Made by a program: the position numbers and the translations under genes. A stretch of DNA of 63,302 nt from Acinetobacter sp. (GTDB lineage Bacteria; Pseudomonadota; Gammaproteobacteria; Pseudomonadales; Moraxellaceae): contig JAITLL010000028.1 in NCBI GenBank assembly GCA_031277915.1, positions 1 through 63,302 of the forward strand, read 5' to 3'. This document shows positions 11,505-63,302 of the stretch, in pieces. The notes beneath the pieces were generated by a model. The model saw only the letters and a list, made by a program, of their open reading frames with translations. It was not told the DNA's origin and ran no database searches. The stretch's first letter is position 1. Each line of letters opens with the position of its first letter.

Positions 11505-12059
11505 CTATGTAAGCATCGCTATAAAATATTCGAATTGTTTATCTCTTTCCTCTATATGGGTATCGCTGAGCCTTTGAATAATAGTTCCTTCAATTATATG
11601 TAGAAGTAGTTTGGCATCATCATAAGAAGTATACGTTTTAAGCATTCTTAGCTGGCTATAAATTTCATTGGTGAGCCATGTTCTATATTTAATGGCAGTT
11701 TGGTATGCATTGGGATAAGTATTCTTGGTTTCAAAAATGGCTTTCAATAACAGGTAATACAGCCCTTCTAAGTCTGTATGTAATTCATAAAGTGTTTTGA
11801 GTTTGTCTCTCACACTTATGTTCTGGTCATATTCCACCATTGCTGTGACTTTGTCTTGAAGCCGTTCTTTTTGCACGAGTAGGCAGATTTCAATAAACCG
11901 CGCTTTGGACTGAAAGTAATGATAAAAAGTCATTTTTGTAATTTCAGACTCTTTAATAATTCTGTCGACACCAACGAGATGAAAGCCGTGGTGGTGAAAT
12001 AAATCAATTGCTTTATTCACAACTTTTAACGCGCGTGTAGAAAGTACTAAAGGTGACAT
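11505..12059 (-). CDS. TetR-family regulator 1, behind a C4-like RNA leader
   Basis: The 184-residue protein has the TetR HTH (residues about 10-55; 'GVDRIIKESEITKMTFYHYFQSK' pattern) and a short all-helical C-terminal domain. It is paralogous to the TetR genes at 34780 and 62889 (shared 'LLLKAIFE...YP.AY..A..YR.WL' block) and more distantly to the one at 44181. Its upstream region (12060-12630) carries a promoter, a C4-like RNA and a 30-codon gene in the same direction, with 176 bases between that small gene and this start. No metabolic gene is adjacent, so its target is not evident; it may regulate itself or act at distance. Confidence 0.88.
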   Translation of the reverse strand: MSPLVLSTRALKVVNKAIDLFHHHGFHLVGVDRIIKESEITKMTFYHYFQSKARFIEICLLVQKERLQDKVTAMVEYDQNISVRDKLKTLYELHTDLEGLYYLLLKAIFETKNTYPNAYQTAIKYRTWLTNEIYSQLRMLKTYTSYDDAKLLLHIIEGTIIQRLSDTHIEERDKQFEYFIAMLT

Positions 12060-12235: not shown

Positions 12236-12328
12236 CTACAAACGGTTAAACCGTTTTAAATACCAGTTAGGTGGTATGGGTAGAGAGAGTTTGGCGAAGG
12301 CCAATAAATGAGAAGAATTAGTACGCAT
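12236..12328 (-). CDS. 30-codon small gene between C4-like RNA and tetR
   Basis: ATG at 12328 is preceded by an excellent AAAGGAG 6 bases upstream and reads 30 residues (MRTNSSHLLAFAKLSLPIPP then NWYLKRFNRL) to TAG. It lies downstream of the C4-like RNA in the same orientation. Its Shine-Dalgarno is part of a sequence (AACAAAGGAG) complementary to the loop of that RNA, so its translation is probably repressed by it. In phage P1 the corresponding place holds icd, which is translationally coupled to ant. The peptide is basic and has no recognised domain. No expression evidence; the call rests on the ribosome binding site and layout. Confidence 0.6.
   Translation of the reverse strand: MRTNSSHLLAFAKLSLPIPPNWYLKRFNRL
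12240..12256. promoter_or_regulatory. 17-bp palindrome overlapping the end of the small gene
   Basis: AAACGGTTAAACCGTTT is a perfect 8-1-8 dyad lying 181-197 bases before the TetR start. It could be a TetR operator or an RNA hairpin. It also encodes part of the small protein, so function is uncertain. Confidence 0.35.
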
Positions 12329-12337
12329 AGCGGACTC

Positions 12338-12374
12338 CTTTGTTAATAAAAGAAATCCTACCGATCACTGCTAA
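12338..12374 (-). promoter_or_regulatory. Predicted target of the C4-like RNA (a2/b2-like)
   Basis: On the minus strand TTAGCAG (12374-12368) and AACAAAG (12344-12338) are perfect complements of the two unpaired segments of the C4-like RNA (CTGCTAA at 12406-12400 and CTTTGTT at 12419-12413). The second segment continues into the Shine-Dalgarno (AACAAAGGAG) of the 30-codon gene. Pairing would block translation initiation. Confidence 0.6.
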
Positions 12375-12382
12375 ATGATGGT

Positions 12383-12458
12383 GGCAGGACGAAAGAGGGT
12401 TAGCAGACTGGCAACAAAGAAACCAGCACACCCGAAGGTGTCCCCCTTCCGCCCTACC
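12383..12458 (-). ncRNA. C4-like antisense RNA, copy 1
   Basis: About 76 nt fold into a closed three-way structure: an outer stem of about 13-14 pairs in 17 positions (12458-12442 with 12399-12383), a hairpin ACACC-TTCG-GGTGT with a cUUCGg tetraloop, and a CTGG...CCAG hairpin whose loop carries CTTTGTT. The minus strand is chosen because a sigma70 promoter lies upstream on that strand and the tetraloop is a UUCG only in that orientation. Size and shape match the C4 RNA of phages P1/P7, which is antisense to the ribosome binding region of icd/ant. It lies in the leader of the small gene and tetR. Confidence 0.72.
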
Positions 12459-12516
12459 GTAGAGAAAAAGGGGGCGAACGAGTTCACGATACACAAAACT
12501 AGGTTTTGAATATCGT

Positions 12517-12539
12517 CTTTGTTAAATAGGGTCTGCTAA
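12517..12539 (-). promoter_or_regulatory. Upstream complement of the C4-like RNA (a1/b1-like), copy 1
   Basis: Minus-strand TTAGCAG (12539-12533) and AACAAAG (12523-12517), 9 bases apart, both pair perfectly with the two single-stranded segments of the C4-like RNA 60 bases downstream. It may act in cis in leader folding or as a decoy. A CAAAAC/GTTTTG hairpin follows at about 12495-12510. Confidence 0.55.
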
Positions 12540-12569
12540 AACCCGCTAGCGATGTAGGCCAGCCCGCAA

Positions 12570-12598
12570 AGGATAGTATTCGCTTTTGTTGGCGTCAA
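12570..12598 (-). promoter_or_regulatory. Sigma70 promoter of C4-like leader 1
   Basis: TTGACG (12598-12593), 17-base spacer, TATCCT (12575-12570). The same promoter is repeated for copy 2 and, in diverged form with the same 17-base spacing, for copy 3. Confidence 0.7.
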
Positions 12599-12630
12599 GC
12601 GTAGGAAATGACAATTGTATTAAAGTAGAG
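12570..12630. repeat. 61-bp direct repeat, first copy (partner at 12855-12915)
   Basis: The promoter and its upstream DNA are repeated 285 bases away at 12855-12915 with three differences in 61 positions, showing that the two C4-like units arose by local duplication. Confidence 0.9.
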
Positions 12631-34779: not shown

Positions 34780-35337
34780 CTATTTTGAATGACTACCCAA
34801 GAACCGCTCTACCACAGCGTCTCTTTCTTCCAAACTGTTTGAGTTTAAAACCTGTAGCAGTAAAGCATCTATAAGGTTTACCACCATATTGGCATCGAAT
34901 TTTGGTTCGCGGATTTCTCCGCTAAAAATCAGATCAAAAATTTCATGGCGCAGCCAATTTCGGTATTCAACTGCCATGCGGTAAGCTTGAGGATAAGCGA
35001 CTCTAATTTCAAAAATGGCTTTGAGTAACAAATGGTACGGGCTGTTAAAGCAGACATGTAAGCGCATAATTTCTTTGAGCTTAGCGCTTGAAGTGTAATA
35101 ACGACTTGAATAAATGATCGCTAATACTTCTTCTTTAAGTAAGCTTTTTTGAAAGGCAATACACATTTCAATGAGTTTTTCTTTCGAGTGAAAATAGTTA
35201 TAAAACGTCATTTTTGTCACTTCGGATTCTTTCACAATCAAGTCTACGCCTGAGGTGTGAAAGCCACGAGTGGTAAAGAGTTGGATTGCGGTCTGAATAA
35301 CCTGTAATTTTTTGGAAGAGATTTCTAAAGTTGGCAT
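34780..35337 (-). CDS. TetR-family regulator 2, behind a C4-like RNA element
   Basis: 185 residues, TetR HTH at the N terminus ('GVDLIVKESEVTKMTFYNYFHSK' pattern) and a short C-terminal domain. Its C-terminal part is very close to that of the partial TetR at the right end ('LKEIM.LHVCFNS.YH.L.KAIFEI...PQAY'), and it is related to TetR 1. Its 5' region (35338-35852) repeats the layout of TetR 1: homologous AT-rich leader (CAATAAAACTTGA block), C4-like RNA and promoter, but with a terminator in between. Targets unknown. Confidence 0.88.
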   Translation of the reverse strand: MPTLEISSKKLQVIQTAIQLFTTRGFHTSGVDLIVKESEVTKMTFYNYFHSKEKLIEMCIAFQKSLLKEEVLAIIYSSRYYTSSAKLKEIMRLHVCFNSPYHLLLKAIFEIRVAYPQAYRMAVEYRNWLRHEIFDLIFSGEIREPKFDANMVVNLIDALLLQVLNSNSLEERDAVVERFLGSHSK

Positions 35338-35395
35338 AGTTTTACCTTTTTAAATTCTTGTTGTTTCTAAAAGAGAAAAAAGCCTGTGCCTTTTT

Positions 35396-35437
35396 GGGAG
35401 AAAAAAAGCACAGCAAAGCCGTAAAGACTGTGCTTGG
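35396..35437 (-). terminator. Terminator between C4-like unit 3 and tetR 2
   Basis: On the minus strand AAGCACAG-N14-CTGTGCTT followed by TTTTT: a canonical Rho-independent terminator between the C4-like transcript and tetR. In unit 1 the same place has a related GCACA/TGTGC hairpin without the T run. Confidence 0.8.
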
Positions 35438-35530: not shown

Positions 35531-35587
35531 TTAAGTGCTGTCGTTATAGCTTTCGGCATCGAGAGCCAAGAAATAATGAATGTGCAA
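35531..35587 (-). CDS. Possible 18-codon TTG-start remnant of the small gene
   Basis: Aligned with unit 1, the AAAGGGAG at about 35604-35597 takes the place of the Shine-Dalgarno, and the aligned start is TTG (35587) leading to an 18-residue frame (MHIHYFLALDAESYNDST), with ATG replaced. It shares only a His/Leu-Leu-Ala trace with the unit 1 peptide. It is probably degenerate and may not be translated. Confidence 0.25.
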   Translation of the reverse strand: MHIHYFLALDAESYNDST

Positions 35588-35634
35588 AGCCAACTCCCTT
35601 TATTGGGAGTTCTGCCAAACATTAAAATTAGGGT

Positions 35635-35707
35635 GGCAGAACGAGAAAGGGTTCGCGGACTGGTTTCGACTCCAGCACACCCGAAGGTGTCCCTCTCCCG
35701 TCCTACC
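35635..35707 (-). ncRNA. C4-like antisense RNA, copy 3
   Basis: 73 nt with the same three-part fold: outer stem (35707-35691 with 35651-35635), the identical ACACC-TTCG-GGTGT hairpin, and CTGG-AGTCGAAA-CCAG. Unpaired segments are GTCGAAA (35670-35664) and TCCGCGA (35659-35653), entirely different from those in copies 1 and 2 (CTTTGTT and CTGCTAA). The leader upstream carries exact complements of both new segments (TTTCGAC and TCGCGGA at 35773-35793), so specificity has changed as a unit. Minus-strand transcription is shown by its promoter and the UUCG tetraloop. Confidence 0.72.
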
Positions 35708-35772
35708 GCTACGGGAGGAGACGAGGAGATGCTCACACAAAACTATTCCTCAGAAGAAATAATCCTGATGTG

Positions 35773-35793
35773 GTCGAAAACAGCGGTCCGCGA
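35773..35793 (-). promoter_or_regulatory. Upstream complement (a1/b1-like) of C4-like RNA 3
   Basis: Minus-strand TCGCGGA (35793-35787) and TTTCGAC (35779-35773) pair perfectly with the two single-stranded segments of the C4-like RNA about 65 bases downstream, in the same order and with a similar gap (7 bases) as in copy 1. Confidence 0.6.
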
Positions 35794-44180: not shown

Positions 44181-44753
44181 ATGTCAAAAAGAGACACAAT
44201 TATAACAACGGCTATAGCCCTTTTTAATCAGAAAAGCTATAACGGTATTGGAATTGATAAAATTATTGCTGAATCCAATGTCGCAAAAATGACATTCTAC
44301 AAATATTTCCCTTCCAAGGAAAATTTAATAGAATCATGTCTTTATAGAAGAAATTCTGATATACAGGCTGCCATATTAGAAAGAATCAATGCAAATGACT
44401 TGCCTTTAGTTCAGCTCAGGAGTTTATTTGATTGGTATATTGACTGGATTTATACCGAAGATTTCAATGGATGTTTATTTAAAAAAGCAACTATGGAAGT
44501 AGTTCAGATTTATCCATCGCTTAAGACTCCAATTAATGAATATCGTGAATGGATCTATCAGCTTGTTTTTTCAATATTAATTAAGTTCTATGTTGAAGAC
44601 CCAGTTGCATTAACTACATTATTTCTCAATATTATTGATGGCATTATTATTGATGGCACAATTGATAAAAGTTTAGTTAACCCTGAAAAAACATGGTCTT
44701 ATATGAAAAAGATCATTGAGCTTGAAAAAGTTGAAGAACTCATTGCCGTTTAA
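44181..44753 (+). CDS. TetR-family regulator 3
   Basis: 190 residues, TetR HTH ('GIDKIIAESNVAKMTFYKYFPSKENLIESC') and short C-terminal domain including 'LIDLFDWYIDW' like helices. Related to the other TetR genes in the window but without a C4-like leader. Divergent from the HDO-like gene at 43858, a likely target. Followed by a terminator. Confidence 0.88.
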   Translation: MSKRDTIITTAIALFNQKSYNGIGIDKIIAESNVAKMTFYKYFPSKENLIESCLYRRNSDIQAAILERINANDLPLVQLRSLFDWYIDWIYTEDFNGCLFKKATMEVVQIYPSLKTPINEYREWIYQLVFSILIKFYVEDPVALTTLFLNIIDGIIIDGTIDKSLVNPEKTWSYMKKIIELEKVEELIAV

Positions 44754-62888: not shown

Positions 62889-63302
62889 TTAATAAACTCT
62901 TTTAAAAAACCTATCCACCACCACATCCCTTTCTTCCAAACTGTTTGAGCTTAGAAACTGTATCATCAAACCATCTATTAAGTTTAAAACCATATCGGCG
63001 TTGGGCCTTAATTCATGGGCTTCTAAACTAAAAATCAAGTCAAAAATTTCATGATGTAACCATTTTCTATACTCAACTGCCATGCCATAAGCTTGCGGAT
63101 AAACCACTTTAATTTCAAAAATGGCTTTGAATAACACATGGTACAGGCTGTTAAAACAGACATGTAAGTGCACTATTTCTTTGAGTTTATCTTTTGAAGT
63201 GTAATAACGATTTGCATAGATAATGGTGAACACTTCTTCTTTAAGTTTGCTTTTTTGAAAGGCAATACACATTTCAATTAGATGCTCTTTCGAGCGAAAG
63301 TA
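62889..63302 (-). CDS. TetR-family regulator 4, partial at right edge
   Basis: 138 visible codons from the C terminus back to the window end; the internal ATG at 63272 is not the start, since the frame continues with 'YFRSKEHLIE' matching the HTH end of the other TetR proteins. It is the closest paralogue of TetR 2 ('LHVCFNSLYHVLFKAIFEIKVVYPQAYGMAVEYRKWL' in pattern). If the layout is conserved its C4-like leader should lie just outside the window to the right. Confidence 0.88.
   Translation of the reverse strand, partial: YFRSKEHLIEMCIAFQKSKLKEEVFTIIYANRYYTSKDKLKEIVHLHVCFNSLYHVLFKAIFEIKVVYPQAYGMAVEYRKWLHHEIFDLIFSLEAHELRPNADMVLNLIDGLMIQFLSSNSLEERDVVVDRFFKRVY

What the first reader, a model, noticed from the sequence alone, without database searches (positions are those of the whole stretch)
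12236..12630. Chromosomal C4-like antisense RNA leader in front of a small gene and tetR, mirroring phage P1 c4-icd-ant
On the minus strand a 17-bp-spaced sigma70 promoter is followed by an upstream pairing segment (12539-12517), a 76-nt three-way RNA (12458-12383), a second pairing segment overlapping a Shine-Dalgarno (12374-12338), a 30-codon gene and tetR. The two unpaired RNA segments (CTTTGTT and CTGCTAA) are exact complements of both target segments. In P1/P7 the C4 RNA represses icd/ant translation in the same way. I recall, unverified, that A. baumannii transcriptome surveys reported C4-like small RNAs; a C4-tetR regulatory unit seems not to be a standard description.
Basis: partly seen in the sequence, partly recalled or inferred. 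Interest (0 to 1): 0.88.

Follow-up and report, generated by a model that had tools for sequence, protein, structure and literature searches.

The report
Barcoded phage-type RNA switches before tetR
Some Acinetobacter genomes carry about twenty copies of a phage P1-type regulatory RNA, most of them in front of a TetR-family gene and nearly all matched to their own leader, which suggests a bank of private RNA switches that could help explain how these bacteria flip between cell types.

Summary
The RNA is a true C4 antisense RNA (Rfam RF01695, 75.6 bits), with exact complements of both loops upstream and over the Shine-Dalgarno. It is one of a family: three C4s in the window, 26 matches in the genome (25 over the cut-off). 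Of the 26, 17 directly precede a TetR of one subfamily; 80 of 80 fetched relatives of these TetRs have one too. Each C4 carries a loop "barcode" matched by its own leader: 101 of 110 modules, against 191 of 11628 swapped pairs. Two output classes exist: P1-like pairing over the Shine-Dalgarno (this locus), and a class with a Shine-Dalgarno hairpin and usually an intrinsic terminator. C4-like sRNAs of A. baumannii are published (Weiss 2016), targets unknown. A TetR family that sets its virulence state is published (Perez-Varela 2022), activation mechanism open. No paper found here joins them; genome positions suggest they are the same loci. Folding predicts that the free leader captures its own C4 and that C4 bound in trans would release it, a self-reinforcing switch that is untested.

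The parts
12570..12598 (-). sigma70-like promoter (TTGACG, 17 nt, TATCCT)
   Evidence: like sites with the same spacing before the other two C4s of the window
12546..12562 (-). 5' leader hairpin CTGGC-CTACATC-GCTAG (compare Region 1 of Weiss 2016)
   Evidence: sequence; published loop motif
12517..12539 (-). upstream pairing segments a1 (TTAGCAG) and b1 (AACAAAG)
   Evidence: own-versus-swapped tests
12377..12464 (-). C4 RNA; predicted mature 5' end at GGT 12458
   Evidence: Rfam RF01695 75.6 bits; covariation
12383..12390 (-). outer 3' strand of the C4 closing stem (GTCCTGCC)
   Evidence: its downstream complement
12355..12362 (-). anti-P1 segment (GGTAGGAT), complement of the C4 outer 3' strand
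   Evidence: such a helix beats the shuffled 95th percentile in 104 of 110 modules
12338..12374 (-). downstream target a2 (12374-12368) and b2 (12344-12338), b2 overlapping the Shine-Dalgarno
   Evidence: class I in 40 of 110 modules
12332..12358 (-). hairpin hiding the Shine-Dalgarno (GGATTTCTTT / AAAGGAGTCC)
   Evidence: RNAfold
12236..12328 (-). 30-codon leader ORF (MRTNSSHLLAFAK...KRFNRL)
   Evidence: start codon and length kept; weak coding selection
11505..12059 (-). TetR-family regulator of the C4-linked subfamily
   Evidence: Pfam PF00440
12765..12852 (-). second, tandem C4 RNA without a1/b1, Shine-Dalgarno or ORF
   Evidence: Rfam 58 bits
12855..12883 (-). promoter-like site of the tandem C4
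35824..35852 (-). promoter-like site of the third, class II, module
35773..35793 (-). a1 (TCGCGGAC) and b1 (TTTCGAC) of the third module
35629..35713 (-). third C4 RNA
   Evidence: Rfam 56.7 bits
35592..35617 (-). anti-P1 (TGGCAGAAC) and Shine-Dalgarno hairpin (AACTCCC / GGGAGTT)
35531..35587 (-). 18-codon leader ORF with TTG start (class II)
   Evidence: sequence; class pattern
35384..35413 (-). intrinsic terminator between leader ORF and tetR (class II)
34780..35337 (-). TetR-family regulator of the third module

Best explanation
Each module is a self-contained phage P1-type C4 leader that controls the TetR gene behind it. One promoter makes a transcript that holds, in order, a1/b1, the C4 RNA, a small ORF and tetR (shown as sequence layout). 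C4 is cut out, most likely by RNase P at the GG of its closing stem (inferred from P1 and from published AB5075 RNA-seq). At this locus, class I, C4 then pairs through its two loops with a2/b2 over the Shine-Dalgarno of the 30-codon ORF, stops its translation and so causes Rho-dependent termination before tetR (inferred from P1 c4-icd-ant; pairing shown, effect not). In class II the a2/b2 pairing is absent and the output is a Shine-Dalgarno hairpin plus, before tetR, an intrinsic terminator. What nearly all modules share is the private pairing of C4 with its own upstream a1/b1, so that many such switches could work side by side in one cell with little cross-talk.
For: C4 model hits and cloverleaf covariation. 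In three genomes, 45 of 47 full-length TetRs scoring at least 200 bits to the subfamily profile have a C4 directly upstream, against 0 of 21 weaker relatives; two partial copies at contig ends set aside (matched by eye). In the window genome this is partly built in, because its 17 C4-linked TetRs made the profile; in the other two genomes (28 of 29 and 0 of 14) it is not. 80 of 80 TetR loci from other Acinetobacter records have a C4, these being the best 80 of 248 by protein similarity. Own-leader pairing: 0 of 20000 permutations; 101 of 110 against 191 of 11628 swapped. Class I target over the Shine-Dalgarno in 40 of 110 against 183 of 11628 swapped. Terminator in 61 of 68 class II leaders and 2 of 40 class I leaders; shuffled 4 of 204 and 3 of 120. 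Barcodes unique in 24 of 24 modules of this genome and in the 18 of 19 parsed in A. baumannii X4-300. Published RNA-seq shows C4-like RNAs in AB5075, in all but two cut at GGW.
Against: No expression data for this genome. 69 of 110 modules lack the P1-type downstream target, and over 24 own modules there is no own-locus signal downstream (9225 of 20000 permutations), so the P1 mechanism cannot be the whole story. The own leader is not the single best partner for 5 of 24 C4s. The Shine-Dalgarno is predicted to be hidden by its own hairpin even without C4 bound, and opens only from 0.015 to 0.14 unpaired when the C4 stem is unavailable. Coding selection on the small ORFs is weak, and their conserved core is also a hairpin. 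5 of the 26 own C4s precede another gene type instead of tetR, and 5 of 19 in X4-300 precede no TetR of the profile. Two TetRs of the subfamily have no C4.
Confidence: 0.75

Rival explanations
1. Bistable RNA memory. A free leader a1/b1 captures the loops of its own nascent C4 and spoils it, which leaves the tetR mRNA intact (ON). Mature C4 from earlier transcripts covers a1/b1 in trans, lets the next C4 fold and be cut out, and so keeps the gene OFF and C4 abundant. Each module is a self-reinforcing, heritable switch that flips when its C4 runs low.
For: a1/b1 is kept in 62 of 68 class II modules although a2/b2 is lost. RNAfold, 108 modules: with the leader free, capture 15.4 pairs, native C4 stem 1.2, anti-P1 10.7; with a1-b1 masked, stem 8.1, anti-P1 7.2; with a control mask, stem 1.6, anti-P1 10.7. 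The stem gains more than 5 pairs in 55 of 108 with the a1-b1 mask, in 7 of 108 with the control mask, and loses in 0. The Shine-Dalgarno is more open with the leader free in 34 and less in 3 (all). Own leader captures the complete C4 in 84 of 110, a swapped leader in 2 of 110. Phage P1 gives the same prediction. The TTTR genes are reported to switch stochastically and in combinations, with no autoregulation seen for the three tested (PMC9802203).
Against: RNAfold cannot form pseudoknots, so capture and native stem exclude each other partly by the method. In 53 of 108 modules masking did not raise the stem by more than 5 pairs, and the Shine-Dalgarno changes little (0.14 against 0.07 unpaired). 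When the transcript is cut at the junction, swapped leaders also capture at least 5 pairs in 79 of 110 (own 110 of 110; means 7.9 and 17.6). No kinetics or expression data.
Confidence: 0.35
2. Homeostatic negative feedback: mature C4 binds a1/b1 of new transcripts and causes early termination or cleavage, holding C4 and TetR at a steady low level.
For: Same private upstream pairing. Many published Group 1 transcripts are about 180-220 nt, which I read as ending near the C4 3' end.
Against: Gives no reason for the covarying anti-P1 helix or for the reported ON/OFF TTTR expression.
Confidence: 0.3
3. Stand-alone trans-acting sRNAs of phage origin with many bacterial mRNA targets, or immunity against incoming P1-like phages (the reading of Weiss 2016).
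For: High abundance and variable loops in AB5075.
Against: Loops match the own leader far better than other leaders; linkage to one TetR subfamily.
Confidence: 0.1
4. Decaying prophage remnants without function.
For: Tandem extra copies lack pairing segments and ORF.
Against: Covariation of stem, loops with leader and anti-P1 helix; conserved ORF length and terminator.
Confidence: 0.03

Closest known systems
C4 antisense RNA of phages P1 and P7 (Rfam RF01695), c4-icd-ant
   Same: Cloverleaf fold, GG processing site, a1/b1 upstream and a2/b2 over the Shine-Dalgarno of a small ORF, an anti-P1 segment (in P1 by eye), and the same predicted capture/release behaviour.
   Different: The gene behind is a TetR regulator, not an antirepressor; many private copies per genome; class II has no a2/b2 but a Shine-Dalgarno hairpin and mostly a terminator.
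Group 1 (C4-like) sRNAs of A. baumannii AB5075 (Weiss et al. 2016, PMC5320573)
   Same: Same RNA family, Region 1 hairpin, GGW processing in all but two, 21 copies, truncated copies in a cluster.
   Different: The parts read treat them as separate sRNAs with unknown targets. The leader pairing, the two classes and a TetR link are not in them; the only main-text hit for 'TetR' is the word tetraloop. Its supplements were not available.
TTTR switch genes of A. baumannii (Perez-Varela et al. 2022, PMC9802203)
   Same: Family of highly similar TetR regulators; 12 locus tags fall beside 12 different Group 1 sRNAs by position (distances 1-31 kb after a fitted linear map).
   Different: The main text does not mention antisense RNA (0 occurrences) and leaves the activation mechanism open; it considers Rho-dependent termination in connection with SrvS.

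Membership tests
C4 antisense RNA (RF01695) | three-stem fold scoring above the gathering cut-off | tested here: met
   75.6, 58 and 56.7 bits against 45 in the window; covariation
C4 antisense RNA (RF01695) | loops a' and b' complementary to a2/b2 over the Shine-Dalgarno of the next ORF | tested here: met
   exact at this locus; 40 of 110 modules in all, so not met in class II
C4 antisense RNA (RF01695) | a1/b1 upstream of C4 in the same transcript | tested here: met
   absent at the tandem copy 12852-12765
C4 antisense RNA (RF01695) | processed by RNase P to about 77 nt | not testable with these tools
   GGT at the predicted site; published for AB5075 copies, not for this locus
C4 antisense RNA (RF01695) | represses translation of the ORF and, by polarity, the gene behind | not testable with these tools
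   needs a reporter assay
P1 immI operon c4-icd-ant | antirepressor gene ant downstream | tested here: not met
   tetR instead; the locus may work like the operon but is not that operon
A. baumannii TTTR switch family | TetR with the shared DNA-binding region, beside a Group 1 sRNA | tested here: inconclusive
A. baumannii TTTR switch family | stochastic ON/OFF expression changing colony type | not testable with these tools
   needs single-cell data for this locus

The most novel reading that the evidence does not exclude
Acinetobacter has turned the phage C4 immunity RNA into a bank of up to about twenty orthogonal, barcoded RNA memory switches. Mature C4 acts as the heritable OFF state by covering a1/b1 and so templating the correct folding of the next C4. 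Loss of C4 lets the leader capture and spoil it and turns the private TetR regulator ON. This would explain stochastic, combinatorial phenotype switching without any protein feedback.
Probability: 0.33. Interest if true: 0.93.

Novelty: new variant of a known kind. Interest (0 to 1): 0.82.

Why it matters
Two published puzzles may be one system: an abundant C4-like sRNA family with unknown targets, and a family of TetR genes that switch on at random, in combinations, by an unknown mechanism and affect whether a hospital pathogen is virulent. The link names the target, the pairing bases and a direct test. It also shows a phage immunity RNA multiplied into many apparently non-interfering host switches, and suggests that P1 c4 itself may be a two-state RNA switch.

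Tried and rejected
A four-segment toggle, in which an unavailable C4 stem would free the Shine-Dalgarno, was first tested and looked unsupported (0.18 against 0.17 unpaired). On checking, the Shine-Dalgarno had been misplaced there and: at a wrong site in the modules with an earlier AGGA, and one base off where AGGA overlaps GGAG. Redone: 0.015 with the C4 stem against 0.14 without, more open in 66 of 110, less in 3. The terminator counts (61 of 64 and 1 of 39) missed four class II and one class I leader for the same reason and are replaced (61 of 68 and 2 of 40). Four of the seven class II leaders without a terminator are the ones before the small lipoprotein-like genes (L009, L013, L014, L021). 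SrvS, the plasmid sRNA that raises TTTR switching, was compared with 24 leaders: no excess complementarity (mean -118.8 against -122.8 for 30 shuffles); a long-duplex energy is a blunt measure, so a short interaction is not excluded. P1-type downstream pairing as the common mechanism was rejected (9225 of 20000 permutations). Rho termination in class I could not be tested.

Rows dropped: 9 of the 29 loci L027-L055 were not parsed by the loop pattern and left out of the module counts. L018, L026 and two tandem copies were excluded from pairing counts; 124 modules were reduced to 110 by removing near-identical ones. L143 was unparsed. 7 of the 9 loci L161-L169 were unparsed. 108 of 110 modules entered the masking test. 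The barcode count in other species used 47 of the 80 loci, those on named chromosome-size records.

Full report
WHAT IS THERE. On the minus strand at 12598-11505 lie, in order, a sigma70-like promoter, a short hairpin, the segments a1 (TTAGCAG) and b1 (AACAAAG), a C4 RNA, a2 and b2 with the same letters, a 30-codon ORF and tetR. The C4 matches Rfam RF01695 over its full length with 75.6 bits (cut-off 45). Two more C4s lie in the window: a tandem copy at 12852-12765 (58 bits) with a promoter-like site but without a1/b1, Shine-Dalgarno or ORF, and a third at 35713-35629 (56.7 bits) in front of another TetR gene.

A FAMILY, NOT A SINGLE CASE. The genome (3.48 Mb, 83 contigs) has 26 C4 matches, 25 of them over the cut-off; none of 14 control genomes has one. 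Of the 26, 17 directly precede a TetR gene, two are extra tandem copies before such a module, five precede a gene of about 94 codons that looks by eye like a small lipoprotein, and two run into a contig end. In the genus 67 of 80 genomes have C4, own included, five of them with more than 20 copies. In the wider class it is 23 of 368 other genomes (369 searched with the own one; at most 11 candidates scored per genome, so copy numbers there are lower bounds).

LINK TO ONE TETR SUBFAMILY. A profile of 17 TetRs of this genome was run on three genomes, one of them a complete A. baumannii chromosome (X4-300, NZ_CP064203.1, which sits in the plasmid collection). Full-length matches of at least 200 bits: 17 of 18 (window genome), 14 of 15 (X4-300) and 14 of 14 (G007) have a C4 directly upstream. 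Matches below 120 bits: 0 of 7, 0 of 8 and 0 of 6. Two partial copies at contig ends were set aside. Adjacency was read by eye. In the window genome the split is partly built in, because the 17 C4-linked TetRs made the profile. Conversely, 14 of 19 C4s of X4-300 precede such a TetR; the other five do not. Of the two TetRs without C4, one keeps what looks like a relic of the distal leader and one shows no leader. In other Acinetobacter records, the best 80 of 248 related TetR loci all carry a sense-strand C4 that ends about 270-340 bases before the gene, and two carry a tandem second one. The C4 model for that search was built from this genome's copies.

PRIVATE BARCODES. In 24 modules of this genome the C4 loop region pairs better with its own leader than with the others: mean -23.8 against -15.5 kcal/mol, own best in 19 of 24, 0 of 20000 permutations as good. 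Loop alone and junction alone are own-best in 12 and 13 of 24, so the specificity lies in the pair. Over 110 distinct modules with 50 different loops, 101 have a1 and b1 in order in their own leader, against 191 of 11628 swapped pairs. The pair of loop and junction is unique in 24 of 24 modules here and in the 18 parsed of 19 in X4-300. Among 47 modules of six other genomes (only those in the fetched set) there is 1 duplicate, where 4.2 are expected when barcodes are shuffled between genomes (168 of 5000 as low). Three pairs of modules here share seven or more loop bases, and all three differ in the junction.

TWO CLASSES OF OUTPUT. Class I (40 of 110, this locus among them) has a2/b2 over the Shine-Dalgarno, as in P1 (183 of 11628 swapped pairs do). 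Class II (69 of 110, the third C4 of the window among them) has a hairpin that hides the Shine-Dalgarno. One module has both and two have neither. In class II 62 of 68 modules keep a1/b1 and in class I 37 of 39, the one with both left out. An intrinsic terminator lies between the small ORF and the next gene in 61 of 68 class II and 2 of 40 class I leaders; shuffled 4 of 204 and 3 of 120. Class I ORFs all start with ATG and 28 of 40 have 29-31 codons; class II ORFs have 18 codons in 58 of 68 and a TTG start in 53 of 68. Selection for coding is weak: synonymous share 0.39 against 0.24 expected, and 0.315 against 0.226. The shared core of the ORFs is also a hairpin. That class II derives from class I is my inference.

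A THIRD CONSERVED PAIRING. Just behind C4 lies a segment that pairs with the outer 3' strand of the C4 stem. The helix scores 22.0 in the own locus, 18.5 with a different strand from another module (lineages share sequence, so this gap is modest) and 13.6 with shuffled sequence. In 104 of 110 modules it exceeds the shuffled 95th percentile, and its letters change together between lineages. By eye on the printed sequence, phage P1 and two other gammaproteobacterial C4 loci have it too, weakly in one. It competes with the C4 stem.

FOLDING TEST OF A SWITCH (numbers, which repeats with the Shine-Dalgarno placed correctly). With the leader free, RNAfold predicts that a1/b1 captures the C4 loops (15.4 pairs), the native C4 stem is nearly lost (1.2 pairs) and the anti-P1 helix forms (10.7). 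With a1-b1 masked, as if occupied by another C4, the native stem returns (8.1) and anti-P1 falls (7.2). A control mask leaves them at 1.6 and 10.7. The stem rises by more than 5 pairs in 55 of 108 modules and falls in none; with the control mask it rises in 7. The Shine-Dalgarno is more open with the leader free in 34 modules and less in 3, but the mean change is small (0.14 against 0.07 unpaired). Without a partner for the C4 stem it opens from 0.015 to 0.14, in 66 of 110 modules. Capture is specific for the complete C4: 84 of 110 own leaders against 2 of 110 swapped ones; for a transcript cut at the junction it is less so (110 against 79 of 110; means 17.6 and 7.9 pairs). Phage P1 gives the same picture: capture 11.6 with stem 5.6 when free, stem 17.6 when masked, and the Shine-Dalgarno goes from 0.41 to 0.10 unpaired. 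Against it: RNAfold allows no pseudoknots, and in about half of the modules the effect on the stem is small.

LITERATURE. Weiss et al. 2016 (PMC5320573; sections 11 and 16 read in full, other passages by term search) report 21 C4-like "Group 1" sRNAs in A. baumannii AB5075, in all but two cut at GGW, with targets unknown. Perez-Varela et al. 2022 (PMC9802203; passages by term search) report 11 TetR-type regulators whose overexpression changes the cell type. Four of them are switched on at random and in combinations, no autoregulation was seen for the three tested, and the mechanism is open. The 11 locus tags and one pseudogene tag fall beside 12 different Group 1 sRNAs when tags are mapped linearly onto the chromosome (median distance 6.5 kb, range 1-31 kb; 1 of 300 random sets as good). 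This is a position match, not sequence identity. No paper joining C4 and TetR was found in the held library (search listings; passages of PMC11472050, PMC12802169, PMC9810633 and PMC10845969). One relevant paper is not held, preprints are not held, and supplements were not available. What I say of P1 (RNase P, Rho polarity in icd) rests on Weiss's summary and on recall.

VERDICT. Shown by sequence: C4 identity, family size, linkage to one TetR subfamily, private pairing, two output classes, the anti-P1 helix. Inferred: C4 keeps tetR off, by blocked translation and Rho polarity in class I and by attenuation in class II. Speculative: a self-reinforcing RNA memory behind the published phenotype switching.

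Noticed in passing
window 62889-63272 (-) and the window's end: A partial TetR of the same subfamily is cut by the contig end; two C4 leaders also run into contig ends (L001, L019), so these similar leaders may have broken the assembly.
   Followed up: partly
L004, L009, L013, L014, L021: Five C4 modules precede a gene of about 94 codons that looks by eye like a small lipoprotein; at L009 a PAAR-like ORF follows (by eye). Four of the five lack the terminator of the TetR modules; the fifth, L004, is in neither class.
   Followed up: partly
window 44181-44753 (+): A more distant TetR relative (105 bits to the profile) without any C4, a useful contrast to the two C4-linked TetRs of the window.
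   Followed up: yes
L136, L137 (phage P1 relatives): P1 c4 shows the same anti-P1 segment by eye; in L137 the fold predicts the same capture of C4 by its own leader.
   Followed up: partly
phages collection, records named Acinetobacter phage MD-2021a (H1-H22): Contigs up to 379 kb, some with several C4 matches, look like a bacterial assembly filed as a phage; NZ_CP064203.1 is a 3.97 Mb chromosome-size record filed as a plasmid.
   Followed up: no
L037, L041: Class I C4s in front of ORFs of about 124 codons (MNAKV...) that may be prophage genes, possibly closer to the phage ancestor of the modules.
   Followed up: no
L140, 37505-37730 (-): The SrvS region of p1AB5075 (aadB leader) holds AACAAAG next to the gene start, the b2 letters of the window locus, but no excess pairing with the leaders overall.
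   Followed up: partly
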